Origin: Alistipes sp.
GTDB lineage: Bacteria > Bacteroidota > Bacteroidia > Bacteroidales > Rikenellaceae
Assembly: GCA_017630735.1 (NCBI GenBank)
Contig: JAGBUS010000047.1
Location: 1-32,765 of the forward strand
Reading direction: 5' to 3'
DNA length: 32,765 bases
Part shown: one piece after another, positions 12,150 through 30,618 of the stretch
How the letters are laid out: each line of letters starts with the position of its first letter
Position numbering within the stretch: position 1 is the first letter of the stretch
Notes under the pieces: generated by a model
What the model was told of the DNA's origin: nothing
The model's database searches: none
The model's input: the letters and a program-made list of their open reading frames with translations, nothing else
Made by a program: the position numbers and the translations under genes

Positions 12150-12279
12150 TAATTTGTTGTTATAAAGGCATCAGATTTGGCGATTTGTCGCAGGCTGAAA
12201 AAGCGGAGTTTACTTGAGGTAAATGAGCATTTTTCAGACAAGCAAAGCGTCAAAGATGACCCCTTATCACAACAAATTA
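12150..12279. repeat. 130-bp palindromic element, copy 1 (3' end of cysS)
   Basis: Both ends read inward as TAATTTGTTGT followed by T/G-ATAA, and the two arms remain similar for about 60 nt, meeting in CTGAAAAA..AGTTTAC / GTAAAT..TTTTTCAG around a 4-nt loop. The last three bases on the minus strand are the TAA stop of cysS. The same termini occur in the palindrome at 30487-30618. It could act as a terminator-like RNA hairpin between cysS and prfB, or be a small non-autonomous mobile element. No target duplication is obvious. Confidence 0.75.
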
Positions 12280-13746
12280 CTCGATCTCCCAGTCAAATCC
12301 GTCCTTACGATCCTTTACTCGAATACCGATGGCTGTGAGATTATCGCGGATCTTATCGGATGCTGCCCAATCCTTGTTTGCCTTAGCCTCCATACGCATT
12401 GTAAGAAGCATATCTACAAGAGGTGATACCATATCTTTGCCTCCTGCCTCAGCTGCCTTCTCGTTGCGAAGGCCAAGGATATCAAAGACATAGCGATTGA
12501 AAGTAGCCTTCAATGTTTCGAGATCCTCGGCAGTAAATGTCTGCTGACCCTCAACTGCCTGGTTGATGATACGCACCCAGTCGAAGAGAGCTGAGATAAC
12601 CATTGGCGAGTTGATATCGTCTGCCATAGCCTCGGCGCAACGACGCTCAAGCTCCTGAACATCAGATGTAGATGTTGCTGCAGGCTTCAACTTTGCGAGT
12701 GCCTCAATACCCTTCATAAGGCGGTCGAGACCCTTCTCTGCTGCCTGGAGAGCATCGTTAGAGAAGTCGAGAGTTGAGCGGTAGTGTGCCTGAAGCACAA
12801 AGAAACGAATGGTCATAGGGGTGTATGCCTGCTCAAGAAGCGGATGATTACCTGTAAAGAGCTGCTCCAAGGTAATAAAGTTACCGAGCGACTTACCCAT
12901 CTTCTGACCATTGATGGTAATCATATTGTTGTGTACCCAGTAGCGTGCTGAGTCCTTACCCATAGCTGCTGTAGACTGCGCAATCTCACACTCGTGGTGT
13001 GGGAACATAAGGTCCATACCACCGCCATGGATATCAAACTGCTCACCAAGATATTTTGTGCTCATTGCAGTACACTCCATGTGCCAACCTGGGAAGCCAT
13101 CACTCCATGGTGAAGGCCAACGCATGATATGCTCTGGAGATGCCTTCTTCCATAGTGCAAAGTCGAATGAGTTATGCTTATCGCTCTGACCATCAAGCTC
13201 GCGTGTGTTAGTTACGATATCATCAAGGTTACGACCTGACAAACGACCATAGTGATAATCCTTATTATACTTCTCAACATCAAAGTAGATAGAGCCGTTA
13301 GACTCATAAGCATAGCCAGCATCAAGGATGCGCTTTACCATCTCAATCTGCTCGATGATATGTCCCGAAGCATGTGGCTCGATAGATGGGGTCTTAACAC
13401 CCAACTCACGCATAGCGTCGTGGTATCGCTCAGTATAGTAGTGAGCAATCTCCATAGGCTCAAGCTGCTCAAGGCGAGCCTTCTTAGCAATCTTATCCTC
13501 ACCATCATCAGCATCCTGCTCAAGGTGACCTACATCGGTGATGTTACGCACATAGCGCACCTTATAGCCCAACGACTGCAAGTAGCGGAACAACAAGTCG
13601 AAAGTTACAGCAGGACGTGCGTGACCCAAGTGTGGATCACCATAAACTGTAGGGCCACAAACATACATGCCTACATGCTCAGGGTTAATAGGCTCAAACG
13701 TCTCCTTGCGGCGTGAGAGCGTATTGTAAAGTACAATCTTTTCCAT
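12277..13746 (-). CDS. cysS: Cysteinyl-tRNA synthetase
   Basis: A 489-residue class I aminoacyl-tRNA synthetase charging tRNA-Cys. The HIGH-type motif is PHLGHARP (about 38-45), after the zinc-ligand motif [10 protein letters not shown]. Further zinc-site residues are in WHMECTAMS and the family block [21 protein letters not shown] lies near 237-257. The KMSKS loop reads KMGKSLGNF. The C-terminal helical anticodon-binding region is complete (ending KDGFDWEIE). It lies 17 bp after the DUF2723 gene. Its TAA stop is the first triplet of the palindrome at 12150-12279. Confidence 0.97.
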
Positions 13747-13763
13747 TATTTTATATTTTTTGT

Positions 13764-16700
13764 TTATATCTTTCCATAAATTACAAGCACCTCATTTGCA
13801 GCATCACTCATCAAGAACTCCTCAGTATCATAGATGTATGGTGCAGGAGCATCCTTACCGTCAATAAATCGTGCGGCAGGGAGTGAGTTATATATCTCGT
13901 AGAGGTTGCATATATGACCCTCGATAAGTGCCATAGCTGGATCATTAGCATCGTCTGGCGCAAGTCGCTTGATTGCTGCAAGGTAATCCACAACAAGTTT
14001 ATCGAAGTTGAGAGGATTCTCCACTAACGGCTCATCGGTTTCGCCATTAGCAACCCAGTCGAAACTACCAGCAAGCAAGTGGCTGATGTTGAGCGTCTCA
14101 ATAATATCAAGCATCTTGTTATAAAGCTCTTCACTTACAGCGAATGAGAAGCTATCGTAGGTAGCATACTGCAAATAGTAGTTCACCCACTCGCCACGCT
14201 GCTTAACATACTCCGCAGCGAGCATATCTCCCTTACGATAGGCACCTTCAGCACGCGCAAAAGTCTCATCACTTGAAAGAAGTCGAGAGTTAATATCATC
14301 AATATCTAAGCCTCGATGCATAGCCGTAGCCTGACGTTCCGCAGCAGCATCCGACAGGTCATAGAAGTACGTAAAGTTATCTCCATCATTGACTATCTCG
14401 ACATGGATATCCAACAAATCGTTCAATTCAGCAACTGCCACTTCGAGGTCCTCCGTAGCACGCTGCAAGAAGTAGTTGGCAATAGTATAATAACCTCGAA
14501 TATATGGCTGTGTATTGCTATGCGAGTAGCCCAACTTCTTAAGTGGCAACATCTCCATACCTCTGTCGAGTAGAGCCTCAGCACGGAGGACATCCTCCTC
14601 AGAGCCACGACGCAGATACTCAGAAGCTACACGTGCGAAGTTCTCACGTATACGCGCTGCAGAGAGGTTAAAGCGGTAGAAGTAATCAACCAAGACATCC
14701 TCATCGGCGATATTGCCGAAATATAGAGGCTCCACACTCTCGTCATTACCCATATAGATTGGATAGAGCTTATCTGCATCCAACGTTCCTGCCTCGCTAC
14801 CTGCACGATACTTGGTATAGATAGGCACAAACGAGTAGCAATAGCCATCGAAGCGAGCATAGTCAATAATACCGTAATCCTTCATAAGGCTCGCCTGGGT
14901 GAACGATATAGGTCGCTTCCATCCGAAGTTTGCGAATAGGTCAAGCATCATAAGGTGATCGCGTGTAAGTAGGCTCTTACCCGACAACGACAACTTAATC
15001 TCATCGACAAGACGCTCCGCATCCTTAGCATCAACAATACCCGACTCAATAGCCGCATCCTTATCCACAGGCACAATATAGTTGCGTGCAGCAATGATAT
15101 AATCAGAGTCAATACCATCAAAAGAGCTATCTACCTTAGCCTTAAGGCGACCTACAACCATGTAATCCTCCTTACGCTGCTCACGTGGCAGAGTTTCACC
15201 CTCAGCCAACAACACCATACGTCCATCATTGATGACAAGCGTCATAGGATCATCCGAAACAAAGAGGCGGATAGCATCCTTCAACAAGATATCATTAGCC
15301 GCAATGGCATCGTTATATGCCCAGTACTCATCCAGTATATCGTAATCTGCAATAAAGGTCTCATCCGACACAATAGCCTCAAAAAGATTACGCGCAACGG
15401 CATACGGTACGTATACATCGTAGAAGCCATCCGAAGATGTATCGCCACTATTGATATATCTCTCAACCATAGGTTGATACTCCTCAATAATCGACTGCGC
15501 CTCCTTGATATGTGATGATATCTCGGCGTAGGTACCCATCAAGGTTTGCATTCTACCACTTGCATCCTTATAGGCGATATTATAGTAGCTCTCATACTCG
15601 ATACGACGACGTGCCTGACGTAGCTTGCGTGCCTTATCGTTATCGAGTACACTCACCACATCGGCAATAAGCGTCCAGTCGTTAACAAAGCTATACTTCG
15701 ACGATGGAATAGTGAAAGGCACTCCATCGGCATCGTTTGCAGCTATCTTCATCTCATCAACATACCACTCACCACCAAGGTACGAAGAGTTCATCACACG
15801 CACATCCTTGCGAACACCCTCAACCTCTTGACAATACCACAATGGGAAGGTATCGTTATCGCCAAAGTTGATGATGATAGCATTCTTAGGTGCTGTATTT
15901 AGATAGTTACGACCAATATCCCTCGCCATGTAACGTCCTGAACGATCATGGTCATCCCAGTTCTCCGTAGCAAGCACCACAGGGACACTCAGGGTGAGCA
16001 ATACCGTAGCAACAGCCGCAACAACGCCACCACGCTGAGGATTAATCTTGCGAGCTAAGCTAAGGAGAATATCTCCAATAGCCATAACTCCAATACCCAA
16101 CCAGATGGAGAAGGCATAGAAGGCACCTGCATATACATAGTCTCGTTCACGAGGCTCGTCAGGAGCAGTATTGAAGTATACAACAAGTGCAATACCCATC
16201 ATTCCGAACAGGAGCAAGACCACGAAGAAATTACGCCAATCGTTATTTAGCTGATAGATAAGACCCAACAATCCAAGCAATAGAGGCAGGAAGAAGTAGG
16301 TATTATGCGCAGGATTATTCTCCATTTCTGAAGGGAGAGCAGTGCGCGCACCAACATACAACTCATCAATAAAATCAATTCCTGACAACCAGCCACCATG
16401 CATATACACACGATTAAAGGTGTCGGCTTCAAGTTGCTCATCATCCTGACGACCTACGAAGTTCCACATAAAGTAACGCCAGAACATATCGCCCATCTGG
16501 TAGCCGAGGAAGTAATTAAAATTCTCCGCCGCAGTAGGCTCATACCATACACCGCCATTGCCATCATCAACACGCACCGTAGCATGACCATCCGTCATTG
16601 CCACCCAGTTATTATCGTAACTTGCACGACGCGAAGAGAACCACATACGTGGGAAGAAGTGCATAGCCTCATCAGGATAGGTATAGCCATCGAAGATAAC

Positions 16701-17909
16701 ACGCTCCTCGTAGATACCTGTCTCAGGGTTCAGCCACATAACCTCCTTAGCGACGAAATCACCCGTAGGAAGATACTCATCATCGGACATAATATCGGGA
16801 TTCTGCGTCACGACATAGTTAGGCATAGCCGTATAATAAGGACCTCGCAACAATGGGCGGTCGCCATACTGATCGCGATTGAGAAGGCTCAAAAGCATGT
16901 GTGGATTTGATGGATTGTTCGAGTTCATAGGCGGGTTTGCCGCAGCACGGATAGAGACCGAAGCGTATGAACTAAAACCAATAAGTATCACCAGCACCGC
17001 CATAGCCACACCATTAAGCGTTCTATAACCCTTACGATGCGTAAACATTATAGCATAGCCCAGAAGCGCGAATACCGCAACAGCGAAAAGTATCATACCG
17101 CTATTGACAGGCATACCGAGAGAGTTAACCACAAAGGTATCTACCGCAGCACCGAGAGCTACAGTATAAGGGATAATAATACCATTTATTGCACCAAGAA
17201 TTAGGAGCGAAACGACCAATGCAAGAGCAATCTTTGCGACATAATCCCACGCAGTACGATACTCATAACGGCGGAAAAACCATATCATCACCAACGCTGG
17301 AATGGTGAGCAAGTTTAGGATATGCACACCGATTGAGAGACCCATCAAGTAGGCAATAAGTATTATCCAACGCATAGATGTTGCACGGTGGGCATTCTCC
17401 TCCCACTTAAGCATCAGCCACACCACCAACGCCGTAAACATTGACGATAATGCATACACCTCACCCTCAACAGCCGAAAACCAGAACGTATCGGTATAAG
17501 CATACGACAACGCACCCACAGCACCTGCACCCAGGATAAGCACCATACGGCTAAACGACATCGGCTCACCATCATTGCGAGTGGTGATACGTCTGGCTAA
17601 ATGGGTGATAGTCCAGAATAGGAAGAGGATGCAAAAGCCCGATGCAACGCCATTCATCGCGTTTATCATCATCGGCACACTCTCAACCGATGGAGCAAAA
17701 AGTGAAGCGATGCGTGCCAGCATCATAAAAAGAGGAGCCCCCGGTGGGTGACCAACCTCAAGCTTGTATGAGGTAGCGATAAACTCACTACAGTCCCACA
17801 AACTTGTTGTAGGCTCAATAGTTAGAATGTAGGATGCAGTGGCAATAAAAAAGACCATCCATCCTACGATATTGTTCCAAAGTTTGAATTTATTCATTTC
17901 GTGCATCAT
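13764..17909 (-). CDS. Very large DUF2723 multi-spanning membrane protein
   Basis: A 1381-residue protein, the longest in the window. The N-terminal part is DUF2723: a first membrane helix (about 13-33), then [33 protein letters not shown], the family signature, followed by about ten hydrophobic helices to residue 325 and three or four more between about 540 and 665. This resembles GT-C glycosyltransferases, with the acidic residues before the first luminal loop as in protein O-mannosyltransferases; the enzymatic role is an inference. The remaining 700 residues are soluble, with one conserved-looking stretch [28 protein letters not shown] near 690-717 and helical repeat-like sequence toward the end. 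The first ATG at 17909 or MNKF at 17897 could be the start. It precedes cysS by 17 bp, so the two are probably cotranscribed. Confidence 0.9.
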
Positions 17910-17932
17910 TGTCGATTACTCTTTAAATCTCG

Positions 17933-17963
17933 CAAATATAATAATATTTGCCCGATAAACGAA
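17933..17963 (-). promoter_or_regulatory. Promoter of the DUF2723-cysS unit
   Basis: A perfect minus-strand -7 box TATATTTG at 17933-17940 with TTCG (three of four bases of TTTG) 19 nt upstream at 17960-17963. Transcription would start near 17929, about 20 nt before the first ATG. The rest of 17964-18101 is A/T-rich with no feature seen. Confidence 0.6.
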
Positions 17964-18101
17964 GAAACTTTGCAAATATTTTACCCTCGCTAAATCATTG
18001 AGCCGAAGATAAAATCACAAAGCATGCACTACAACCACAAAATTCACACTCCTTTTAGAACTATTATTGGAATATTTCAGAACAAGAAATTATCGTTAAA
18101 A

Positions 18102-19007
18102 TTACCCTATATTCTCCTTGATTCTGGCAAGTCCTGCGCGTGTCATTGCCGTCTCGCCTGCCAACTTTTCGAACTCCTTATCACTCATGCTCAGCCAAGC
18201 ACCTGAATCAAACGACAGAGGGTTAAATAATGGATCAAACAGAGAGTTTCGATGCTCCGAAGCATGTTGATTAAATGGGCATACATTTTGGCAAGCATCA
18301 CAGCCATATATCCATCCATCTAAATTAATATCCTCCATATCGTCTTTACGCTCGATAGTTCGACAAGAGATACAACGGCTGGTATTTAGCGTTCTACTCT
18401 CAGATATCGCCCCATTTGGGCAACTATCCACACAGCGACGACACGTACCGCAACCAACACCCTCCATAGGCTTATCGTATTCATCAACCTCCTCGCTGAT
18501 AAATAGCTCACCAAGGTGCATCATTGACCCGAAACGAGGATTTACAACCAACGAATTGCGACCTATCCATCCAAGACCTGCTCGCACAGCAAGACTCTTC
18601 TCTGCCACAGGAGCAGAATCGGTAAATGCACGATAGCGCAACCCAGGAGCATACTCCTCCAATCGCTTAGCAACACGCTGAAGCATCTCCTTTATTGTTT
18701 TGTGATAATCTCTGGCGAGAGCATAAGAGGCAATCTTTGTGCGACATTCCTCAGCATAGCCACGACTATAAGGCGATAAGTACGAAACAGCACAAACAAC
18801 AACGCTTCTACACCCCTCAACCAAAAGTTGCGGGTCGAAACGCTTTTCCACGTTACGTTCGAGATACGAGAGTGTAGAGTGTGCGCCACTTAACAACCAC
18901 TCATTGAACAACTTTCGTTCAGCATCCAAAGAGTCGGCAGAAACAACACCTACAAGGTCGAAACCCTCCTCCAAAACGGCGTTTATTAGAACTTTTCGGG
19001 ATATCAT
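18102..19007 (-). CDS. queG: Epoxyqueuosine reductase QueG
   Basis: A 301-residue cobalamin-dependent iron-sulfur enzyme that reduces epoxyqueuosine to queuosine in tRNA, the last step of the modification. The probable catalytic aspartate is D130 in YRAFTDSAPVAEK. The two-cluster ferredoxin region follows: CGTCRRCVDSCP (C186, C189, C192, C196), then C212/C215 and GCDACQNVCPFN (C236, C239, C243). AGLGWIGRNSLV at about 143-154 is another family block. The protein is somewhat shorter than E. coli QueG (about 380), which is usual in Bacteroidetes, where the C-terminal HEAT-like tail is absent. It is transcribed away from the acyl-CoA ligase at 19106. Confidence 0.95.
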   Translation of the reverse strand: MISRKVLINAVLEEGFDLVGVVSADSLDAERKLFNEWLLSGAHSTLSYLERNVEKRFDPQLLVEGCRSVVVCAVSYLSPYSRGYAEECRTKIASYALARDYHKTIKEMLQRVAKRLEEYAPGLRYRAFTDSAPVAEKSLAVRAGLGWIGRNSLVVNPRFGSMMHLGELFISEEVDEYDKPMEGVGCGTCRRCVDSCPNGAISESRTLNTSRCISCRTIERKDDMEDINLDGWIYGCDACQNVCPFNQHASEHRNSLFDPLFNPLSFDSGAWLSMSDKEFEKLAGETAMTRAGLARIKENIG

Positions 19008-19024
19008 TGAAAATTATTTTATGG

Positions 19025-19032
19025 CAAAATTA
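19025..19032 (-). promoter_or_regulatory. Probable -7 box of queG
   Basis: Minus-strand TAATTTTG fits TAnnTTTG and would start transcription near 19021, about 14 nt before the ATG. No good TTTG was found at the expected distance upstream. Confidence 0.4.
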
Positions 19033-19105
19033 GCAAATTTTAATAAATTATTGGTAACTTGCACTCGGTTTGTATAATAAATCGAAAAACCTAAACATTG
19101 AAACT

Positions 19106-20764: not shown

Positions 20765-20789
20765 CATTATCAACACCTTAGATATGTAG

Positions 20790-20827
20790 ACTTTTTGTAG
20801 GGGAAGAGAAATTTCCCCTCAAAAAGT
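20790..20827. repeat. Inverted repeat after the acyl-CoA ligase gene
   Basis: ACTTTTTGtAGGGGAA and TTTCCCCTcAAAAAGT pair over about 15 positions around a 6-nt loop. The stem may end the upstream transcript, although no T run follows on the plus strand. Its right edge touches the -33 box of the tRNA-Thr promoter. Confidence 0.6.
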
Positions 20828-20857
20828 TTGCAGATTAAAAAATCTTATGTACTTTTG
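20827..20857 (+). promoter_or_regulatory. Promoter of tRNA-Thr
   Basis: TTTG at 20827-20830, 19 nt, then TACTTTTG at 20850-20857. The -33 region TTTGCAGATTAAAAAA is the same as at tRNA-Asn (2087). Confidence 0.8.
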
Positions 20858-20888
20858 TGCGCTCTTAAAAGGAGTAGGGTTTATTAAT

Positions 20889-20960
<72 letters not shown>

Positions 20961-20962
20961 CA

Positions 20963-20998
20963 TGAGGGATAGCCGAAAGGTTATCCCTTATTTTGTTT
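20963..20998. terminator. Terminator hairpin of tRNA-Thr, overlapping the end of glycerate kinase
   Basis: AGGGATAgCC, loop GAAA, GGtTATCCCT, followed by TATTTTGTTTAT on the plus strand. The convergent glycerate kinase stop codon (20981-20983) lies inside the right arm, so the same DNA encodes the last two residues of that protein. Confidence 0.8.
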
Positions 20999-22117: not shown

Positions 22118-22121
22118 AGCA

Positions 22122-22129
22122 CAAAGATA
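22122..22129 (-). promoter_or_regulatory. -7 box abutting the glycerate kinase start codon
   Basis: Minus-strand TATCTTTG ends four bases before the ATG, so transcription would start at or next to the A of the start codon, giving a leaderless message. No matching TTTG is visible 19-21 nt upstream, which lowers confidence. Confidence 0.45.
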
Positions 22130-22220
22130 GTGTAACACGGCGACATACCAGTTACGATGTCAAAGATACACAAAAAGTGACGATATTTCAACTTAGGAGG
22201 TTGTCATTTATTAAGGAGCA

Positions 22221-22290
22221 ATAGGTATTTATAAAGATGGATAGGTATAATGGGTAAAAAATCGCCTATAACTACCCATAAATACCTATC
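22221..22290. repeat. ATAGGTAT direct and inverted repeats downstream of the terminase
   Basis: ATAGGTAT occurs at 22221 and 22241 and inverted at 22282. GATAGGTATAATGGGTA (22240-22256) pairs with TACCCATAAATACCTATC (22273-22290) with one gap. It could be a terminator, a protein-binding site or a remnant of an attachment site. Nothing else is seen in the gap 22139-22312. Confidence 0.5.
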
Positions 22291-22312
22291 ATTCACTATA
22301 ACCACAGCGCAC

Positions 22313-23764
22313 TTAGATAAAGCGTGCGCGTTGCCAGCGGCTACCGTTTGAGGTGGTTATCTCGCGCTCGACAACGCCGGTGAGTGCATCGGCAGCATCG
22401 TCATGGCGGTTAGCGCGAAACAAGCGGCGGTAGGTGACAAGATGCTGATAGAACTCGGACCAACGAAGATGCCAATCCTCAGGCATACGCACATTATGCA
22501 GAACCGTAGCCGAATTGGAGAGGATGCGCGCCTCCTTATTACCGCTCTGGTGGAACCACTCTACACGTGTGCGAGGGGCAAGGCGTTGCAGTGCTCGCGC
22601 AAAGCCACGACCTCCATTATTACTCTCGACATAGGCATAGCGAGTATCGGAACGCTCAAACATCGAAGCAACAAGGCTCTCGGTAAGCTCCATAGGCTCC
22701 TGGGTATAGACTATATCGGTGATATATATCACACCATCCATATCCACAACATAGGCGATAGAGCAGAGGTAGTCACCACCAGTATCTGCCGTATCGGTAT
22801 AGCTCGCGCGAGTGACGATATCGCGCGGAAGCTCGGAATATGTCCGAAAGCCATCGCCATAAAGGAGACCCTCGCGTGTGGTGGGGTGACCCTGATACAT
22901 AGCCTCGAAGCGCACGGCATCCAAGCGACGCTTAGCCTGGAGTAGCTCGACGCTCTGCTGTTCGGGCCACAGAGCCTCGCCCATCTGTCGCGGGTCGAGG
23001 TCGTTGGGTGGTGTAGCCTTAAGTGCCTCAAAATTCAGCACAAGCCACTCATCGCTCCCAACATCGTCGATATCACTCATAGAGGTCATAACACGGCATG
23101 GCTCCGTGCGACAGAGCGTGCCAATAAGATCCTCCTCGTGCCAGCGCGTGAAGACTATCAACTCGCGCGAAGCATTGTGCATACGCGTGCGAACAACAGA
23201 GGTATACCACTCCCAGCAATTCTCTCGCACAACAGGCGACTGAGCCTCCATAGCATCCTTATAGAGGTCATCGAGGATAAAACAGTCGACGCGGTTGCCC
23301 GTGAGTGAGCCCTCGCGACCTACACTTATAAGCTCCCCCTTATAACCGATAATCTCAACCTCATCCGAAGTACGGATATAACCTGCAGGTTTAGCACCCT
23401 GCTTAATGGTGGTATCGGGAAAAATCTCGCTATACTCCCTCGACTCCAAGATACGTTGAACACGTCGATTGAACTTCGACGCGAGTGTTCCAGAGTAGGA
23501 AGCAATAGCTATACGCATATCGGGATCAAGTCCGAGCATATAGGCAGGTAGCAGCGTGGTGGCTCCGACACTCTTGCCATGTTGCGGTGGCACAGTGACA
23601 ATCAACTTGCGAATACGACCACGCGCGTATGCCTCCAATACAGCATAATAGGTACGATGAAAAGGTGTCATCTCAAGAAACGGATAGACGCTCATCGCAA
23701 ACTCCTCAAATGAGGGTATGGCACGCTCCGCACCACACACCTCGCCAACCTTACTACTCTTCAT
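22313..23764 (-). CDS. Phage-type terminase large subunit (orphan)
   Basis: A protein of 483 residues from the ATG at 23764. The ATPase domain has VPPQHGKS (Walker A, 58-65), ASYSGTLASKFNRRVQ, and CFILDDLY (Walker B, 161-168), then the coupling-like FTRWHEEDL (205-213). The RNase H-like nuclease domain keeps its acidic residues: YTDTADTGGDY (D324/D327), YAYVESNNGG (E380) and HDDAADALTG (D455/D456). It is full length with no sign of decay, yet there is no portal, capsid, protease or tail gene on either side. Base composition looks clearly more GC-rich than its neighbours. The start overlaps the end of the upstream 100-residue gene by 11 bp, so the two are translationally linked. A TTG six bases upstream is a less likely start. 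It may be a prophage remnant or a domesticated DNA-packaging motor. Confidence 0.9.
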   Translation of the reverse strand: MKSSKVGEVCGAERAIPSFEEFAMSVYPFLEMTPFHRTYYAVLEAYARGRIRKLIVTVPPQHGKSVGATTLLPAYMLGLDPDMRIAIASYSGTLASKFNRRVQRILESREYSEIFPDTTIKQGAKPAGYIRTSDEVEIIGYKGELISVGREGSLTGNRVDCFILDDLYKDAMEAQSPVVRENCWEWYTSVVRTRMHNASRELIVFTRWHEEDLIGTLCRTEPCRVMTSMSDIDDVGSDEWLVLNFEALKATPPNDLDPRQMGEALWPEQQSVELLQAKRRLDAVRFEAMYQGHPTTREGLLYGDGFRTYSELPRDIVTRASYTDTADTGGDYLCSIAYVVDMDGVIYITDIVYTQEPMELTESLVASMFERSDTRYAYVESNNGGRGFARALQRLAPRTRVEWFHQSGNKEARILSNSATVLHNVRMPEDWHLRWSEFYQHLVTYRRLFRANRHDDAADALTGVVEREITTSNGSRWQRARFI

Positions 23765-24056
23765 CGCCAAGTAATAACAAATTTATCATCTCACGAAATG
23801 AAAAATCGTTCGTCACCTCATCGCCGCCAATCGTGGTCGACATCTCCCACCACACAGGAGTAACCCTTACAACAACATCCTTAGGCAAATCACCGCCCTG
23901 AATAGTATTGCGATGCACTACAACAGTAGTCCTCAACCTGCAACACACCTCATCATCATAACACAAGACTACCCCACTGAAGAAATCTCGGTCTCCAATA
24001 ACCTCCATCAATCGCTCAGCAACCTGAAGATAAACATCATTTGAAAATTCGTACAT
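23754..24056 (-). CDS. Unknown 100-residue protein upstream of the terminase
   Basis: I do not recognise this protein. It is 100 residues, acidic, with no signal peptide or membrane helix. The middle reads as beta strands (FSGVVLCYDDEVCCRLRTTVVVHRN, then VVVRVTPVWWEM), and it ends with NDFSFREMINLLLLGDEE. It overlaps the terminase gene by 11 bp and is divergent from the CI/LexA-like repressor, so it is probably coexpressed with the terminase under that repressor. A small terminase subunit is the obvious guess from position, but no DNA-binding helix-turn-helix is visible, so that is not supported by sequence. Confidence 0.7.
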   Translation of the reverse strand: MYEFSNDVYLQVAERLMEVIGDRDFFSGVVLCYDDEVCCRLRTTVVVHRNTIQGGDLPKDVVVRVTPVWWEMSTTIGGDEVTNDFSFREMINLLLLGDEE

Positions 24057-24100
24057 AACTGATTAATTAGGGTTTATTAATTAAATTTTTTGTCTCAAAC

Positions 24101-24132
24101 CTTGCAACTATAAAATAAATTGCTTAACTTTG
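24101..24132 (+). promoter_or_regulatory. Promoter of the CI/LexA-like repressor
   Basis: CTTG (24101-24104), about 20 nt, then a perfect TAACTTTG at 24125-24132. The leader would be about 68 nt. A small inverted repeat overlaps the -7 box (next entry). Confidence 0.75.
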
Positions 24133-24142
24133 CACAACAAAG
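24128..24142. promoter_or_regulatory. Possible repressor operator over the -7 box
   Basis: CTTTG, 5 nt, CAAAG is a perfect 5-bp inverted repeat covering the end of the -7 box and the start of transcription of the repressor gene. Such a position suits autorepression, but the repeat is short and could be chance. Confidence 0.3.
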
Positions 24143-24205
24143 ATATATTCAATAATTTATCTTGTCAATAGTTTTGTACAATTATTTAATATAATATTTT
24201 CTTAT

Positions 24206-24886
24206 ATGGAGACGATAGGGCAGCGATTGAGACTTATACGTAAAGAGTTAAATATGACGCAAGAGCAACTGGCTCAGCATCTTGGCATAGGCAAAGCAGC
24301 TCTCTCGATGATTGAAACAGGAAAGGCTGGACTATCAACACGCAATAGAAACATCCTTGTTCAGGATTTTAACACCAACCCTGAGTGGATTGACAACGGA
24401 AAAGGTAAAATGTTTAACGCAGAGCCTGACTTCACGCCATATACTCACCGTACAGATAAGTCGCTTCCACTGCAGAGCGTTCCACTATACTCGATTGAGG
24501 GAACAGCAGGTTTAGTACCTATCTTTGCAGAGGGATCAACTGCTCAGCCAATAAACTATATTCACATACCAAACCTTCCAAAGTGCGATGGCGCAATATA
24601 TGTTGTTGGCGATTCGATGTACCCTTTGCTCAAGAGTGGCGATATCATTCTTTACAAGCAGTTGCGCGATGTGAGAGATGTATTTTGGGGTGATATGTAT
24701 CTCCTTTCGATAGATATGGATGGCGAGGAGTATATAACAGTTAAGTATGTTCAAAAGTCAGAGCACGAGGGATATATCCGACTCGTAAGCCAGAATCAGC
24801 ACCACGCCGACAAGGAGATTGAGGTAAGCCGCATACGCGCAATCGCACTTATCAAAGCGTCGGTTCGTATGCATACAATCGGGTAA
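24206..24886 (+). CDS. XRE-S24 family CI/LexA-like self-cleaving repressor
   Basis: A 226-residue protein. Residues 3-60 are an XRE-type helix-turn-helix (IGQRLRLIRKELNMTQEQLAQHLGIGKAALSMIETGK). Residues about 95-215 are an S24 peptidase domain with the catalytic Ser137 (VVGDSMYPLL) and Lys180 (EYITVKYV). A probable self-cleavage bond Ala101-Gly102 lies in EGTAGLVP; the spacing of 35 residues from the cleavage Gly to the Ser is that of LexA. DNA damage sensed through RecA is therefore a plausible inducer. It is divergent from the 100-residue/terminase pair. It could instead be a host regulator of the same fold. A strong terminator follows. Confidence 0.9.
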   Translation: METIGQRLRLIRKELNMTQEQLAQHLGIGKAALSMIETGKAGLSTRNRNILVQDFNTNPEWIDNGKGKMFNAEPDFTPYTHRTDKSLPLQSVPLYSIEGTAGLVPIFAEGSTAQPINYIHIPNLPKCDGAIYVVGDSMYPLLKSGDIILYKQLRDVRDVFWGDMYLLSIDMDGEEYITVKYVQKSEHEGYIRLVSQNQHHADKEIEVSRIRAIALIKASVRMHTIG

Positions 24887-24912
24887 TGATTTAGAAAGAG
24901 TAATAAGCAATA

Positions 24913-24946
24913 AAAATGGTGTTAAACAGATGTTTAACACCATTTT
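24913..24946. terminator. Bidirectional terminator between repressor and folA
   Basis: AAAATGGTGTTAAACA, 2-nt loop, TGTTTAACACCATTTT is a perfect 16-bp stem with A/T ends between two convergent genes. Confidence 0.88.
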
Positions 24947-24962
24947 ACAATATTATAAATCT

Positions 24963-25445
24963 CTACTTTTTATCGTAGACCAAGAACGCAAATGGCGACT
25001 CATACTCCTCGCCACGTTCAAAACACTCCTCCTTAACCAAGGTCCACTTACTATAATCAATCTCTGGGAACGAGGTATCGCCCTCATAATCTCGCTCTAC
25101 GCGTGTGATATACATTCTGTCAGCAATATCCAACGACTGAGCATATATCTGAGCACCACCCATGATGAATATCTCCTCATCACCCTCAGCCATAGAGATA
25201 GCCTCCTCAAGTGAGTGTGCCGTGAATGCACCCTCAAACTCAACATCAGAGCGCGTAATAACAATATTCTTACGCTTAGGCAATGGCTTAGAACCCAACG
25301 ACTCAAATGTTTTACGACCCATAATCACAGGATGACCAGATGTCGTCGTGCGGAAGAAGCGCATATCCTCCTTTATATGCCACAACAGCGAATTCTTATC
25401 GCCAATTGTGCCGTTCTGTGCAATTGCAACAATTATGCTTATCAT
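24963..25445 (-). CDS. folA: Dihydrofolate reductase
   Basis: A 160-residue enzyme making tetrahydrofolate from dihydrofolate with NADPH. Family motifs: IVAIAQNGTIGDKNSLLWHIKEDMRFFR (5-32, with the substrate-binding acidic residue in KEDM), HPVIMGRKTFES, and EEIFIMGGAQIYAQSL, the NADPH-binding GG turn. Length is normal. It lies 12 bp after thyA, the usual pairing, since thymidylate synthase turns methylene-THF into dihydrofolate that FolA recycles. It is the last gene of the unit. Confidence 0.97.
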   Translation of the reverse strand: MISIIVAIAQNGTIGDKNSLLWHIKEDMRFFRTTTSGHPVIMGRKTFESLGSKPLPKRKNIVITRSDVEFEGAFTAHSLEEAISMAEGDEEIFIMGGAQIYAQSLDIADRMYITRVERDYEGDTSFPEIDYSKWTLVKEECFERGEEYESPFAFLVYDKK

Positions 25446-25457
25446 ATCAGTAATCTT

Positions 25458-26351
25458 TTAGAATGAAAGTGGAGCTTTAATTGCTGGATGTGGATCGTAG
25501 CCCTCCAACGTAAAGTCCTCATAGGTATAGTCGAAGATAGACGTAACATCAGGATTTAAGTGCATAACAGGGAGCTTTCGTGGCTCACGCGCAAGCTGCT
25601 CATGCGCCTGGTCGAGATGATTCAAATAGAGATGTGCATCTCCCAATGTATGGACGAACTCTCCTGGCTCAAGACCACACTCCTTGGCTATCATCATCGT
25701 AAGGAGTGCATACGATGCTATATTGAATGGCACGCCGAGGAATGTATCACCACTGCGCTGATACAACTGACACGACAACCTGCCCTCAGCCACAAAGAAC
25801 TGGAACATAGTGTGGCAAGGAGGCAATGCCATACTATCAACATCGGCAACATTCCATGCCGAGACAATCATACGACGAGAGTTAGGATTCGTCTTTATTG
25901 TTTCGATGACCTTCTTAATCTGATCAATAGCACCGCCATCACCAGAGGGCCAGCTACGCCACTGATAGCCATAAACATTATTTAGATCGCCAAAGCGATA
26001 GCCCTCAATAGGCGACTCCACACCTGCGGCAGCGAGAAACGTATCTTTATCAACTGGCAGCACACCATGCTGCACACAAAGCTCATTATAGTAGCGGAAA
26101 GCATCACTATCCCAAATATGAACTCCATGATCTACAAGATACTTAATATTGGTATCGCCCTTCAAGAACCACAACAACTCGTAAATAACGCCCTTCAAGA
26201 AGAGCTTCTTTGTGGTAACCAAAGGGAAACCCTCACGAAGGTCGAAACGCATCTGATAGCCAAAGATACCCTTAGTACCTGTACCCGTTCTATCATCACG
26301 CACAACACCATCGCGACATATCTTATCCAACAATTCAAGATACTGTCTCAT
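25458..26351 (-). CDS. thyA: Thymidylate synthase
   Basis: A 297-residue enzyme methylating dUMP to dTMP. The catalytic cysteine is C179 in [22 protein letters not shown] (20-31) holds the phosphate-binding arginine; the R-S-G-D block is [20 protein letters not shown]; the C-terminus [10 protein letters not shown] matches the family. It is about 33 residues longer than E. coli ThyA (264) because of an insertion around residues 88-117, as in other long-form ThyA proteins. Its start overlaps the end of lpxH by 17 bp. Confidence 0.97.
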
Positions 26352-27093
26352 CTATATCAAATGTTTTAAGTTCGAGATTATTACTATCATCCATAACAAT
26401 ATACGTAGCTCGCGCGCCAGACCAATCGCTCATAAACAAAACATCCAAATCATCCTCCGTATGACGATAAGGAAGGTGCATGTGACCGAAGATATAAGCC
26501 AAAACATCGTTATTCTGACTGCGATGCTCACGCGCATAATCCACCAAGTAATGTAGATTATCTGCTGTTATATTCTCTGTGCTATGGCTTTTTCGAGACT
26601 TGCCACTCCACCACTGTCCGAACTTCAAAAAGAGGTCAGGATGAATAAGCCAACTGAATATTGCTCGTAGCACATTGGAGCGAAACGCCCTATTCATCAG
26701 CTTAAGCATAGGGTCACCATGGATGTTCATATTATCGCCATGAGCAAGATGAAGCTTCGCGCCATTTACGACCTCTACGCGAGGAGCACGTACCACCTCG
26801 ATACCACACTCCTTCTCAAGATAGTCGTAGCACCACATGTCGTGGTTGCCTGCATAAAACACCACCTTAACGCCTCTATCAAACAATTGAGCAAGACGAC
26901 CTAATACACGCACAAAACCCTGGGGAACGACACGTCGGTACTCAAACCAAAAGTCGAAGATATCGCCCATAAGATATATGCACGTAGCATCCTTAGCGAT
27001 AGCATCCAACCATCGACAAAAAGCCTGTTCAGTGCGTTTTGCTTGCTTAGCATCGCCAGCACCGAGGTGTATGTCCGATACAAAATATATCAT
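26335..27093 (-). CDS. lpxH: UDP-2,3-diacylglucosamine diphosphatase LpxH
   Basis: A protein of 252 residues from the ATG at 27093. It is a calcineurin-like metallophosphoesterase expected to hydrolyse UDP-2,3-diacylglucosamine to lipid X in lipid A synthesis at the inner membrane. Metal-binding motifs appear in order: SDIHLG (6-11), [28 protein letters not shown] and FGHMHLP. An upstream in-frame ATG (27132) would extend into the preceding gene; [11 protein letters not shown] at 27093 begins 1 bp after that gene's stop and directly at the first strand, so I use it. Its end overlaps thyA by 17 bp. Other YbbF-type phosphoesterases are the alternative. Confidence 0.9.
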
Positions 27094-27094
27094 C

Positions 27095-28234
27095 CTATAG
27101 AAGAGCCTTGATTTCGCGTTCCAACGACTCAATATTAAGAGGTGCTACTCGAATATTGCCCTCACGGTCGATGATATATGCCTTTGGCAGAGTATCTACA
27201 TTAAATAGAGTGAACACCTCGGCATGATTTCCTCCATATACCGAAATCCATGGATGCTTCTGCTGACGCACCGCCTCAATCCATACCGCCTCATCAGCAT
27301 CTGCAGATACATGATATACCTCAAAGCCCTTATCATGGTAACGCTCATACAACGCCTTAAGGTCTGCATTTATATTGTTACACATAGCACTCTCCGAAAT
27401 CCAGAAATAGAGCAATACTACATCGCCTGAGAGCGAAGCCAAACTATGCTTAGCATGATACATATCCTCAAGCTCAATATCAGGATATGACGCCAACTCA
27501 ACGCGGTTTATAACATCTATCAACGTCTCATTATCGGCAATCTCACGCTCGATATTAGCGATATATGGTGAGTCTGGGTAGTTCGCCTTAAGACCATTGA
27601 GCACTGCGCTATAGTGTGCCATGGTGATACCATAGCCATCAAGCTGAGGGATATACTGCTCTGCCACAGCATGACGCATAGCATAGAGTGCCGCAAGCTT
27701 ACCCTGATTAGAGCCTACGAAGCGTACCTGAGCCGTAATAGCCTCCTGCGCTGCACGGTAAGCCTCAACCTCTGAGTAACGCTCAGCAGTATTCAAACGC
27801 TCAGCGATAAGAGCCAAACGGTCACATGCACCGAAATATTCATGATTAAACTGACGAATCAACGCTGACTCCTCAGAACCCTCGACCACATAGTTAAGGA
27901 ATATGTCGCCCGCAGCTTCAAGTCTGATATCATCACCAGGAGCCACAATAAGCGTAACAGGGCGATCATTGCCTGGGAAACACAATCTATAGAATCGTGG
28001 CGAGCTATCCTCCTCGATATTCAACGAGAAAGCAAAACCTCCATTATCCTGAAGTGCAGCACCATCAATACGCTCAGGCATAGCAAAGTTATCAGATATA
28101 CGCTCAAGATATACAGAGTCTACATTGCTACCTACAAAACGACCCGAAATAGTTGTATTACCCTCACCGTGCTCGCTACCACACGAAACCAAGAGAGAGA
28201 CAAAAGCAACAAGGGATAAAAGATATTTCTTCAT
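27095..28234 (-). CDS. Thioredoxin-fold lipoprotein (DUF4369/TlpA type) with degenerate CxxC
   Basis: A 379-residue predicted lipoprotein: signal peptide ending LLVSC with lipidated C18. Residues about 28-120 form a beta-rich domain of the DUF4369 type (ISGRFVGSNVDSVYLERIS), 120-240 are helical, and 255-379 are a TlpA/AhpC-like thioredoxin fold (SGDVVLLYFWIS..., HPWISVYGG, LFNVDTLPKAYIIDREGNI). In TlpA proteins the fold carries WCxxC; here the site reads ISESAMC, so only the second cysteine (C285) remains and S282 replaces the first. The cis-proline P350 is kept. Normal disulfide exchange is therefore unlikely; a binding or single-cysteine role is possible. It is the upstream neighbour of lpxH (1-bp gap) and lies 65 bp after the DUF4290 gene. 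Confidence 0.88.
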   Translation of the reverse strand: MKKYLLSLVAFVSLLVSCGSEHGEGNTTISGRFVGSNVDSVYLERISDNFAMPERIDGAALQDNGGFAFSLNIEEDSSPRFYRLCFPGNDRPVTLIVAPGDDIRLEAAGDIFLNYVVEGSEESALIRQFNHEYFGACDRLALIAERLNTAERYSEVEAYRAAQEAITAQVRFVGSNQGKLAALYAMRHAVAEQYIPQLDGYGITMAHYSAVLNGLKANYPDSPYIANIEREIADNETLIDVINRVELASYPDIELEDMYHAKHSLASLSGDVVLLYFWISESAMCNNINADLKALYERYHDKGFEVYHVSADADEAVWIEAVRQQKHPWISVYGGNHAEVFTLFNVDTLPKAYIIDREGNIRVAPLNIESLEREIKALL

Positions 28235-28299
28235 ACTTATTTAAATTCATTTTCTGCGAGGCTTCATCACAATATCACGATTGCCTCAACTATGGATAA

Positions 28300-28968
28300 T
28301 TACTTATGTCCGTTGTGACGTTGATTATTCTTACTATTCTTCTGCACCTTATGACGGCTATTACTACGCTGCTGCACCTTACCTCGACGTTGTACGCGCG
28401 TTGCTGCACCCTGACGATACTCACTACGCATTGAGCTTATCTCCGAAAGGTCGATTTCGAGCTTATTATCTGCCATAAGATGTATATCACGAATGATAGA
28501 GTCGTTATTTGGATGCTCATTATTGAACTCATAACTCTTAGTTCGCATAAAACGCGCTACGTTGGCAATCTCACCCACCGCACGCGAAGGGTCACTATCC
28601 TCGGCTATAAGACGAACAAAACGCTGTGCATACTTACCATAGTGCTTAAACATAGCACGCGACTGAGGATATGATAGTTTTTGAGGTCTTAATGTCAAAT
28701 CTTGGCGTGATGGTTGTGCGTATGGCGAGTCGACGTCTAACTGAAAATCTGACATTATGAAGAGATGATCCCAAAGCTTATGTTTGAAATCTTCGGTATC
28801 ACGTAGCGTAGAATTGAGATTACCCATAACCGCAATGACAGCCTTAGCCTGTCGAGTGCGCTCCTGGCGATCCTCAATCTCCAAGAGCGAGTCAACCATC
28901 TCATGTATATGGCGACCATACTCTGGAAGATAGAGTCTACGACGTGTATAATTATAATTTTTTCTCAT
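28300..28968 (-). CDS. DUF4290 family protein
   Basis: A 222-residue protein of a family found in Bacteroidetes, recognised from YNYTRRRLYLPEYGRHIHEMVD at the N-terminus and the following helical region with FKHKLWDHLFIMSDFQLDVDSPY. Its molecular function is not known. Residues about 185-222 are a basic, Gln/Arg/Asn-rich and probably disordered tail (RRGKVQQRSNSRHK..), suggesting contact with nucleic acid or the ribosome, which is inference only. It is probably cytosolic, as no signal peptide is seen. It precedes the thioredoxin-fold lipoprotein on the same strand. The 212-bp gap 28969-29180 to the divergent sigma-54 gene shows no clear promoter or RNA. Confidence 0.85.
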   Translation of the reverse strand: MRKNYNYTRRRLYLPEYGRHIHEMVDSLLEIEDRQERTRQAKAVIAVMGNLNSTLRDTEDFKHKLWDHLFIMSDFQLDVDSPYAQPSRQDLTLRPQKLSYPQSRAMFKHYGKYAQRFVRLIAEDSDPSRAVGEIANVARFMRTKSYEFNNEHPNNDSIIRDIHLMADNKLEIDLSEISSMRSEYRQGAATRVQRRGKVQQRSNSRHKVQKNSKNNQRHNGHK

Positions 28969-29180
28969 TTTGTAATGATGTTAATTCATAACTGATGAAT
29001 ATTACCCCAATAACGAAAAGCGCCTCCAATTTAGTGCTTATAGCTCATTATGATAACGGTACTACACCACACTGCGGGGGACTATTGCACCGATGACTAA
29101 AAGATATCATCTTTAACCATAAAACTTATGGTGTGCTTTAACCATACAAAGTAACTAAAAATAATTTATATAAACAAACT

Positions 29181-30323
29181 ATGACAAAAATTTTACTTCT
29201 TTCACACTCCAAAAGCATGCTTAACTCATTAAGCGAACGACTAAGGTTTGAGAACTTCGATACATCGGAGGCTGACAACATAACATCGGCTACCGAGATG
29301 TACGACACAAACAACTTCGATGCCGCAATTGTTGATGGCGTGATGGAGCTTAAGGATATAGGACTACCAACAATCGTCGTGGCACAAAAAGCAGATGTTA
29401 ATAGTGCTATAGAGGCTCTCCGCAGTGGTGCTATCGACTATCTCAGTACCCCAATAGACATGAACCGTCTACTCACAACCCTGCGCAACATACATAGCGA
29501 CGATATACCCACCGAGCATCTTCGAACGCGCACCTCGCGTCACAACGCAAAACGCACGAACTATGCCACACAACCCATCATAGGACACTCCGAAGCTATC
29601 GAGCATGTACGAATGATGATTAAGCGCGTGGCACCTTCAGATGCAAGAGTGCTGGTACTCGGCGAGAATGGCACAGGCAAGGAGCTTGTAGCGCGGTGGC
29701 TACATATTAAGAGCCTACGCGCAAATGCTCCGTTTATAGAGGTAAACTGCGCCGCGATACCCGCAGAGCTTATCGAGAGCGAACTTTTTGGTCACGAAAA
29801 GGGCTCGTTTACCTCGGCAGTAAAACAACGTAAAGGCAAGTTTGAGCTTGCTGATGGAGGGACACTCTTTATGGATGAGATAGGCGACATGTCGCTATCG
29901 GCACAGGCGAAGGTACTACGCGCACTGCAGGAGAATAAGATAACACGTGTGGGCGGAGACAAGGATATAGCTGTGGATGTGCGCGTTGTGGCGGCGACGA
30001 ACAAGGATATACGCCACGAGATTCGTGAGGGCAACTTCCGTGAAGACCTCTATCATCGACTAAGCGTAATAGAGATAGAGGTACCGCCCCTTCGAGAACG
30101 CCGCGGAGATATAGGACTACTCGTTGACCACTTTTTAGAGGAGATATGCTCGCGACATAATATTGAGACTAAGAGCATTGAGCGAGAGGCAATAGATATC
30201 CTCGCTTCACGAGAGTGGACGGGAAATATCCGCGAGCTACATAATGTCGTTGAGAGACTTGTAATCCTCAGCGACACAACAATCACAGCCGATTCAGTAC
30301 AGATGTACTGCAAAGCGAAGTGA
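29181..30323 (+). CDS. Sigma-54 activator with degenerate receiver and no DNA-binding domain
   Basis: A 380-residue NtrC-type protein. Residues 1-104 are a receiver-like domain: the phospho-acceptor position is D52 (AAIVDGVM), but the usual N-terminal acidic pair is missing (ILLLSHS) and the conserved Lys is replaced by Thr (LSTP, T90). Residues 133-355 are the AAA+ domain: Walker A GENGTGKE (161-168), a variant GAFTGA loop reading GSFTSA (208-213), Walker B GGTLFMDEIGD (226-236), VPPLRERRGDI and REWTGNIREL. The protein then ends at QMYCKAK; the FIS-type helix-turn-helix that normally follows (about 60-80 residues) is absent. The stop TGA is provided by the first unit of a GTGAAARGT repeat. 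It may work without site-specific binding, as some HTH-less activators do, or be a truncated gene. Confidence 0.9.
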   Translation: MTKILLLSHSKSMLNSLSERLRFENFDTSEADNITSATEMYDTNNFDAAIVDGVMELKDIGLPTIVVAQKADVNSAIEALRSGAIDYLSTPIDMNRLLTTLRNIHSDDIPTEHLRTRTSRHNAKRTNYATQPIIGHSEAIEHVRMMIKRVAPSDARVLVLGENGTGKELVARWLHIKSLRANAPFIEVNCAAIPAELIESELFGHEKGSFTSAVKQRKGKFELADGGTLFMDEIGDMSLSAQAKVLRALQENKITRVGGDKDIAVDVRVVAATNKDIRHEIREGNFREDLYHRLSVIEIEVPPLRERRGDIGLLVDHFLEEICSRHNIETKSIEREAIDILASREWTGNIRELHNVVERLVILSDTTITADSVQMYCKAK

Positions 30324-30385
30324 AAGGTGAAAAGTGAAAAGTGAAAGGTAAAAAGTAAGGTGCGCTGAAGCGCAGAAGTTTATTA
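30319..30385. repeat. GTGAAARGT tandem repeat with shared core, copy 2
   Basis: Five imperfect units of AGTGAAAGGTGAAA type at 30319-30360 are followed by GGTGCGCTGAAGCGCAG and AGTTTATTA, matching the inner part of the element at 12061-12087. The inverted right arm present in copy 1 is missing. The first unit contains the stop codon of the sigma-54 activator. Confidence 0.7.
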
Positions 30386-30392
30386 TAGGGAG

Positions 30393-30466
30393 GTTAAAGA
30401 AATTAGTGAATTTAAAGAAGTTAAGGATTACTCCTTAAACTCACTAAACTCCTTAAATTCCTTAAC
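30393..30466. repeat. GTTAAAG/TTTAAGGA inverted repeat
   Basis: About 34 nt of imperfect 9-nt units (GTTAAAGAAATTAGTGAATT..) are followed, after a 4-nt loop, by the reverse complement series (..CCTTAAATTCCTTAAC). It can form one long A/U-rich hairpin and could end transcription of the sigma-54 gene. It belongs to the composite repeat tract between 30319 and 30618. Confidence 0.65.
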
Positions 30467-30486
30467 ACACTACCACCCAGCGAGAC

Positions 30487-30618
30487 TAATTTCTTGTCAG
30501 AAGGGGTAAGATGTGTTACATCACAAAAGCATCCCACCTGGGATAGTACACGAGGTACAGCCCAGGTGGGATAACTTTTAGGGATGTGACGCAGATTGCG
30601 CCTTATCACAAGAAATTA
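30487..30618. repeat. 132-bp palindromic element, copy 2 (3' end of the barrel gene)
   Basis: The ends are a perfect 11-bp inverted repeat TAATTTCTTGT (12 bp with the flanking C). The arms stay about 70 percent similar for 33-35 nt (AAGG..TG.GT.ACATC), then close with a perfect 12-bp inverted repeat ATCCCACCTGGG (30531-30542 and 30561-30572) around an 18-nt loop. The terminal TAA on the minus strand is the stop codon of the outer-membrane protein gene. Termini match copy 1 at 12150-12279; the inner sequence differs. Confidence 0.8.

What the first reader, a model, noticed from the sequence alone, without database searches (positions are those of the whole stretch)
12150..30618. Two copies of a ~130-bp palindromic element whose terminal TAA is the stop codon of the neighbouring gene
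Elements at 12150-12279 (130 bp) and 30487-30618 (132 bp) share inward-facing ends TAATTT[G/C]TTGT[T/G/C]ATAA-like, the same total length and full-length imperfect palindromy, but have different central sequences. In both cases the outermost TAA on the minus strand is exactly the stop codon of the adjacent gene (cysS; a barrel protein ending in a natural C-terminal Phe). Arms differ within each copy, unlike a fresh insertion. This could be a small mobile element that targets stop codons, or a family of long 3'-UTR hairpins kept by selection for RNA structure. I know of no named family with these ends.
Basis: partly seen in the sequence, partly recalled or inferred. Interest (0 to 1): 0.72.

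Follow-up and report, generated by a model that had tools for sequence, protein, structure and literature searches.

The report
Stop-codon-anchored modular DNA hairpins
Uncultured gut bacteria related to Alistipes carry many copies of a roughly 130-base hairpin that mostly begins right at the stop codon of a gene, points the same way, and is built from interchangeable nested layers; how it spreads and what it does are not yet known.

Summary
Both palindromes start exactly at the upstream gene's stop codon. In 800 kb from three carrier genomes there are 47 places, about one per 17 kb. In this sample, not selected by ends, 34 of 47 have a stop codon of a co-oriented gene at -12..+3 of the start, against 2 of 47 at the other end. 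Near-identical copies behind different genes share the hairpin and usually little else. The hairpin consists of nested 'shells' swapped between copies on both arms together. Wobble pairs and tandem G.A mismatches make the strand complementary to the upstream mRNA the better-folded one (121 of 127); other 3' inverted repeats in the same sequence lack this bias. Copies are enriched between convergent genes. The cysS stop is filled in 17 and unfilled in 13 of 30 loci. Tests speak against integron attC and REP/RAYT; no Rfam match. I read it as a non-autonomous mobile palindrome (ERIC/YPAL-like in kind) acting through its folded antisense strand. Transposition, enzyme, and RNA versus single-stranded DNA are inferred, not shown.

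The parts
12150..12279 (-). Element 1, 130 bp, gene-sense orientation on the minus strand (GTGATAAG arm next to cysS); better-folded strand is plus
   Evidence: CM 80.7 bits on +, 47.6 on -
12277..12279 (-). TAA stop codon of cysS, shared with the outer stem of element 1
12203..12229 (-). Core module type III of element 1 (TGCTCATTTACCTCAAGTAAACTCCGC read on minus)
   Evidence: type III defined; found in other Bacteroidia
12277..13746 (-). Host gene of element 1, CysS-like, 489 aa (name by sequence, recalled)
10918..12018 (-). Downstream co-directional gene, release-factor-2-like (prfB; name recalled); -1 to 3 nt from cysS in nine unfilled relatives
30487..30618 (-). Element 2, 132 bp, gene-sense orientation on the minus strand; better-folded strand is plus
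   Evidence: 116.2 bits on +, 73.7 on -
30616..30618 (-). TAA stop codon of the barrel-like gene, shared with the outer stem of element 2
30540..30563 (+). Core module type II of element 2 (GGGATAGTACACGAGGTACAGCCC on plus; GGGCTGTAC..GTACTATCCC on minus)
30616..31095 (-). Host gene of element 2, 159 aa barrel-like secreted protein (by eye); its neighbour 29181-30323 (+, sigma-54 activator-like, by eye) is convergent

Best explanation
A high-copy family of non-coding, non-autonomous mobile palindromes. One unit is the hairpin itself (mostly 127-134 bp), placed in one orientation directly at the stop codon of a gene, so that the protein is unchanged (in related genera some genes end at a TGA inside the unit). 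The object recognised is most likely the folded strand complementary to the upstream mRNA, either as single-stranded DNA during copying (as bottom-strand attC hairpins are used by integrons) or as RNA in transcripts that enter from the far side. Fixed mismatches at depth 12, 14 and 24-25 would be recognition features. Copies then exchange inner shells by recombination with other copies, which replaces both arms at once because the tract lies between shared outer arms. SHOWN: the family, stop anchoring, orientation, unit boundaries, paired shells, strand asymmetry, filled and unfilled sites. INFERRED: that copies arise by insertion rather than only by conversion of old copies, the acting enzyme (not found), RNA versus DNA, and why stop codons are chosen.
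For: Stop anchoring: 100 of 127 strict copies in frame at the stop versus 3 of 127 at the other end (both ends were selected to be TAA/TTA); without that selection 34 of 47 versus 2 of 47 (p 2.5e-12). Unit: among 84 pairs of copies at least 93% alike with under 60 nt of ungapped shared upstream flank, identity ends 8-11 nt before GTGATA (at the stop) in 68 and 5-9 nt after the TRAC in 49; e.g. L193/L117, 99.1%, same genome, different genes. Shells: similarity of the same shell on left and right arm correlates at 0.62-0.74, outer versus inner shells of the left arm at 0.12-0.23 (125 elements). Strand: antisense RNA fold better in 121 of 127; sense A.C 524 versus G.T 98; control of 177 other 3' inverted repeats A.C 217 versus G.T 276 (p 4.6e-13); DNA fold better on the antisense strand in 7 of 7 elements picked. 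The asymmetry runs over the depth from 10 to 70. cysS: inserts of 141-168 nt at four filled loci versus -1..3 nt at nine unfilled ones.
Against: No autonomous copy with these ends was seen: four far-apart end pairs enclose ordinary genes by eye. Y1 transposase in 0 of 61. No consistent target-site duplication (TA on both sides in only 11 of 29). The cysS tree also suggests nested losses (L222, L218 beside L216/L221, which share one element), so unfilled sites are not all ancestral; three unfilled loci have other sequence of 70-196 nt in the gap (L214, L228, L231). Identity ending at the hairpin edge is also expected from gene conversion between old copies. Some of the 84 pairs are orthologous or not independent (L188/L093). 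The A.C excess is weaker in other genera (56 to 28) and absent in the second subfamily (19 to 22). A DNA enzyme cannot by itself tell an in-frame TAA from any other.
Confidence: 0.5

Rival explanations
1. A resident regulatory structure rather than a mobile element: a 3'-boundary hairpin formed in antisense-direction RNA that halts or caps transcripts entering a gene from its 3' side, diversified by gene conversion.
For: Enriched between convergent genes: 28 of 42 versus 108 of 353 for all ORFs in the same loci, p 8.6e-6. G.U pairs and tandem G.A on the antisense strand over most of the depth; covariation through G.U in that strand, e.g. UG 47, CG 16, UA 9 of 72 at one pair.
Against: No T-run follows the hairpin: 3 of 127 antisense, 2 of 127 sense. 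14 of 42 copies sit before a co-directional gene, where no opposite gene reads in. Copies at a given stop are patchy. Convergent enrichment may only reflect tolerance.
Confidence: 0.28
2. A sense-strand mRNA hairpin (REP-like) that stabilises mRNA or slows ribosomes at the stop; the weaker sense fold is a compromise that lets ribosomes finish.
For: Position and orientation. PMC12306157 (passages read) says that REPs within 15 nt of a stop stall ribosomes. PMC2229807 (passages) says YPAL elements are co-translated with upstream genes.
Against: The weakening is not confined to the ribosome-proximal base; it extends to depth 60-69. At depth 24-25 the antisense strand has tandem G.A, a stabilising motif by general knowledge. 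Other 3' inverted repeats show no such bias.
Confidence: 0.12
3. Integron-type attC sites or another hairpin-recombinase target, with genes as cassettes.
For: Same plan as attC (recalled): oriented imperfect palindrome behind the stop codon, bottom strand folded, variable middle.
Against: attC R boxes at the ends in 0 of 127; integron integrase over cut-off in 0 of 61 genomes, although all 61, like all 14 controls, show weak matches from other tyrosine recombinases. The one gene pair followed, cysS-prfB, keeps its order where both genes were found.
Confidence: 0.04
4. MITE of an IS630/mariner-type transposon with TA duplication.
For: TA precedes ATTT in 22 of 29 copies of the unselected set that could be parsed; 11 of 29 have TA on both sides.
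Against: 12 of 29 have TG on the right; outer ends vary, unlike fixed terminal repeats; no long copy seen. IS630 transposases themselves were not searched.
Confidence: 0.05

Closest known systems
YPAL / RU-2 of Yersinia (PMC2229807, passages; the original 2006 paper recalled, not seen)
   Same: Palindromic repeats with empty and filled chromosomal sites, read together with upstream genes; recalled: tend to lie close behind stop codons
   Different: 168 bp, internal inverted repeats, target duplications of 3-26 bp; here the ends pair with the stop codon itself, shells are swapped, no duplication found, antisense strand favoured
ERIC / IRU / RU-1 of enterobacteria (PMC2229807, passages)
   Same: 127-bp repeats in enterobacteria with terminal inverted repeats; imperfect palindromy recalled
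   Different: No anchoring to stop codons and no modular shells in the passages read
REP / BIME / REPIN with RAYT transposase (PMC3733652, PMC2817692: listings; PMC12306157: passages)
   Same: Dispersed palindromes, some close to stop codons
   Different: 20-40 bp units; here Y1 transposase is absent (0 of 61)
Integron attC (listings only; details recalled)
   Same: Behind stop codon, oriented, bottom strand folded, variable centre
   Different: No R boxes, no integron integrase over cut-off
Palindromic candidate RNAs of human-gut metagenomes (PMC8040213, passages)
   Same: Palindromic structured candidates from gut bacteria, one of 109 bp mostly in Bacteroidetes
   Different: 230 of 250 predicted to be terminators; no sequence was compared here

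Membership tests
Integron attC | R boxes RYYYAAC / GTTRRRY (motif recalled) at the ends | tested here: not met
   0 of 127 on either strand
Integron attC | Integron integrase in the genome | tested here: not met
   TIGR02249 over cut-off 0 of 61; weak matches in 61 of 61 and in 14 of 14 controls
REP/REPIN with RAYT | Y1 (REP-associated) transposase | tested here: not met
   PF01797 0 of 61; found in 5 of 14 control genomes
MITE (IS630/mariner type) | TA duplication on both sides | tested here: inconclusive
   TA/TA in 11 of 29 parsed copies, TG on the right in 12 of 29
MITE (any) | Autonomous element with the same ends | tested here: inconclusive
   None seen in the loci held; four far-apart end pairs enclose ordinary genes by eye; whole genomes not read
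ERIC | ERIC sequence | not tested
   No direct comparison with ERIC; a 34-nt type III core found no match in E. coli genomes
YPAL | Target duplications of 3-26 bp | tested here: not met
   12 filled cysS loci with a usable gene end: an 8-bp repeat (CGAGTAAT) beside prfB only in the own genome; repeats under 6 nt were not looked for
Rho-independent terminator | T-run after the hairpin | tested here: not met
   Five T within 12 nt: 2 of 127 sense, 3 of 127 antisense
Known Rfam family | Match at gathering score | tested here: not met
   Window: only tRNAs; both elements at relaxed thresholds: only scores far below gathering
Retroelement (target-primed) | Reverse transcriptase in carriers | tested here: inconclusive
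   PF00078 in 20 of 61; none found in own genome, G017, G050, G058, but present in carriers G039, G040, G024 (MAGs incomplete)

The most novel reading that the evidence does not exclude
A mobile hairpin system that places one folded single strand, complementary to the message, exactly at translation stop codons, and whose nested, separately exchangeable stem layers form a combinatorial recognition code; one core layer is shared with palindromes in other phyla.
Probability: 0.22. Interest if true: 0.88.

Novelty: new variant of a known kind. Interest (0 to 1): 0.72.

Why it matters
Bacterial palindromic repeats have been known for decades, but in the 2007 review passages read here how they move was still unproved. 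This family makes the question testable: its copying unit is sharply bounded, its target is a single codon position with a fixed direction, its layers record exchange between copies, and the strand that must fold can be read from the wobble pairs. It may affect the 3' ends of many genes in uncultured gut bacteria (about 120 copies per 2 Mb in the three carriers sampled, extrapolated). The shared core in Pseudomonas and other genera hints at a wider, overlooked group.

Tried and rejected
Chance A/T-rich ends: rejected. Insertion with TA duplication: not consistent. Target duplication at cysS: an 8-bp repeat CGAGTAAT flanks the whole inserted block in the own genome, but none of the other usable filled loci has an equivalent repeat beside prfB (13 filled loci printed, L227 with a wrong gene end; L221 was misparsed and not scanned). 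Target-primed reverse transcription: fits the precise gene-side junction, but several carriers lack a detected reverse transcriptase while others have one. Mutation bias as the source of the strand asymmetry: recalled strand biases (C to T on the sense strand) would give the opposite sign; not tested. Helical phasing of mismatches (about 13, 24.5, 37, 50): spacing 11-13, too loose to separate A-form from B-form. In one search the DNA-parameter part printed nothing (ViennaRNA failed to load in a subprocess, as one search showed); strand folding was used instead on 7 elements. A first orientation analysis of the g16/g20 loci was wrong, because minus-strand matches were not turned; it was redone by arm type, 17 of 29 loci parsed. 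On the Pseudomonas veronii plasmid the related palindrome does not look stop-anchored in the annotation; the other plasmid copies were not analysed for this.
Full report
WHAT WAS CHECKED. The TAA at 12277-12279 and at 30616-30618 on the minus strand closes the CysS-like ORF and the barrel-like ORF. The end pattern is far above chance in the window (4 hits, expected 0.20, 0 of 100 shuffles).

A FAMILY. The own genome (a 1.85-Mb MAG, 80% complete) has a third exact copy and 37+41 single ends at up to 2 mismatches, control 3+4. In the genus, 14 of 61 genomes have exact paired ends. The same scan of viral contigs found none. A covariance model (R1, 72 sequences, antisense orientation) hits 88 of 151 genus genomes (at most 22 scored per genome) and 39 of 150 genomes of the family, in 4 of 22 genera.

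SAMPLE NOT SELECTED BY ENDS. To avoid the bias of exact ends I took 40 stretches of 20 kb from three carriers: 47 places. In 34 of 47 a stop codon of an ORF of 90 aa or more, on the strand opposite to the better model hit, lies at -12..+3 of the start (the script's label says -9); in 21 exactly at 0. On the other side this holds for 2 of 47, one of which (L196:18595) has its strand misassigned by score, as its arms show. Of the 13 places without such a stop, 7 lie within 60 nt of another model hit, that is in tandem. In the end-selected set of 127 distinct copies the figures are 100 and 3.

UNIT OF COPYING. Among 164 copies found by their arms, 84 pairs are at least 93% alike with less than 60 nt of ungapped shared upstream sequence. 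Identity ends 8-11 nt before GTGATA, that is at TAATTTNNN, in 68 of 84, and 5-9 nt after the right-hand TRAC in 49 of 84. Pairs are not independent and a few are orthologous (L188/L093) or block copies (L173/L174). A clear case is L193 and L117: same contig, different genes, 99.1% alike.

NESTED SHELLS. For 125 copies I compared left and right arms at three depths. Similarity of a shell on the left arm predicts that of its partner on the right arm (r 0.62, 0.74, 0.68), although the partners lie far apart in the sequence. The outer shell predicts the inner shells of its own arm poorly (left arm r 0.23, 0.12; right arm 0.33, 0.21); the two inner shells correlate at 0.57. In 76 of 281 pairs of copies with the outer shell alike on both arms, the next shell differs on both arms. 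Discordant arms (left alike, right different) are rare outside the core: 8 of 467 and 11 of 183; in the core window 32 of 423. Six core types centred on (G)TAC..GTA(C) recur (57 palindromes in 800 kb, 15 outside the model's hits; shuffled control 0). Type III also sits in a second subfamily with unrelated outer arms. Exchange by conversion between shared outer arms explains the paired swap without special machinery (inference).

STRUCTURE AND STRAND. RNAalifold finds 33 pairs, 18 with a double change; the outer S position is G-C in 36 and C-G in 35 of 72. Copies that share modules count more than once. Outer TTTNNN varies and pairs. Depth profile of 75 non-redundant copies: near-perfect stem to 11, then in the sense reading G.R at 12 (72 of 75), T.C at 14 (64), T.C or C.T at 24-25, C.A at 22 and 28. 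On the other strand these are Y.C, A.G, tandem A.G/G.A and G.U. Counted without reference to strand, sense A.C exceeds G.T 524 to 98, and the antisense RNA fold is better in 121 of 127. In 177 other 3' inverted repeats of the same 800 kb the figures are 217 to 276; in 40 model elements 139 to 47 (p 4.6e-13). Single-stranded DNA parameters agree in 7 of 7 elements picked, so this does not decide between RNA and DNA. Against the rule: in genera g16/g20 the excess is smaller, 56 to 28, and in the second subfamily (11 sequences) it is not seen, 19 to 22 summed over depth.

SITES WITH AND WITHOUT. At cysS, 30 loci (the own genome and 29 relatives, 87-98% aa identity): 16 filled and 13 unfilled by script, plus L227, filled by eye. 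Nine unfilled loci have -1 to 3 nt between cysS and prfB; three have other sequence (70-196 nt) and one was not parsed. Four filled loci have 141-168 nt, room for one hairpin; others are longer. Shells differ between relatives. The tree is patchy; L222 and L218 are unfilled beside L216 and L221, which share one element, so losses probably occur. Gain and loss cannot be fully separated here. No consistent target duplication.

CONTEXT. Of 45 places with callable neighbours (of 47), 42 have a co-oriented upstream gene; 28 of these face a convergent gene; baseline 108 of 353; p 8.6e-6. In genera g16/g20, 17 of 29 loci were parsed: a sense stop within -40..+11 in 13, an antisense one in 4; 5 sense stops at -6..-1 and 5 at a TGA inside GTGA of the element.

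MACHINERY. No Y1 transposase (0 of 61), no integron integrase over cut-off (0 of 61), reverse transcriptase in 20 of 61, present in some carriers and not detected in others. No long copy with these ends was seen in the loci held; four far-apart end pairs enclose ordinary genes by eye. The acting enzyme is unknown.

WIDER LINK. The type III core (CTCATTTAC N3-9 GTAAACTSCGSWTTT) occurs in 10 of 395 Bacteroidia genomes, own included, 8 of 197 genera, control 0, in 6 viral-contig records, and a palindrome with this core has relatives in 16 plasmid records, 14 of Pseudomonas. Of 12 loci, 5 have a sense stop within 7 nt of the palindrome's edge; 8 have a sense and 3 an antisense stop within -60..+39. 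On the Pseudomonas veronii plasmid the palindrome lies upstream of a gene. I do not claim common descent of the whole element.

LITERATURE. Nine searches ran, in open-licence PMC text only. None listed a description of this family among the results shown; core strings of 14-15 nt are in 0 papers, and strings of 9-10 nt gave 220 papers of which the 15 listed look unrelated. Passages were read from PMC2229807, PMC2267715, PMC8040213 and PMC12306157; other papers were seen as listings only. Subscription papers, such as the original YPAL paper, were not available, so the novelty claim is limited to these searches.

VERDICT. A real, large and unusual family: ordinary in kind (dispersed palindromic repeats), unusual in being tied to stop codons in one direction, in its swapped nested layers, and in favouring the antisense strand.

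Noticed in passing
12030-12136 and 30319-30358 (window): Purine-rich degenerate repeats (AAGTGAAAGGTGA...) that, at 12030-12136, form another large inverted repeat behind the first element; similar repeats (TTTAAGGAGTTTAGTGA.., GACCACAGAGACC..) follow many elements in relatives, and one starts at a stop codon (L214).
   Followed up: partly
L255-L260, L254, L261-L265; L241-L252: Core module AAATGCTCATTTACNNNNGTAAACTSCGCTTTT or close relatives in palindromes of several Bacteroidia, of Pseudomonas, Halomonas and Ca. Fukatsuia plasmids and of viral contigs records: a cross-phylum repeat.
   Followed up: partly
L165:17167, L172, L182, L192, L195 (sense strand): Second subfamily (GAGGCTGAATAAAAAGTG...TTCAACCTC, about 120 bp) with the type III core but unrelated outer arms; several copies lie within about 25 nt of a stop codon.
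   Followed up: partly
L168:15637-15690 and L150:4951-4993: Short derivatives of about 45-60 bp with the same arms but no inner shells, as if the centre had been deleted.
   Followed up: no
L085, L099, L129, L154, L188: Tandem hairpins that share the junction TTAATTT, the second copy starting at the TTA of the first.
   Followed up: partly
22313-24886 (window): A terminase-like ORF next to an HTH/S24-like repressor ORF (read by eye from the translations): possibly a prophage remnant.
   Followed up: no
NZ_CP077935.1 (L253): A Staphylococcus aureus 'plasmid' stretch carries the type III core; no feature is annotated in this stretch, and the record may be mis-assembled or contaminated.
   Followed up: no
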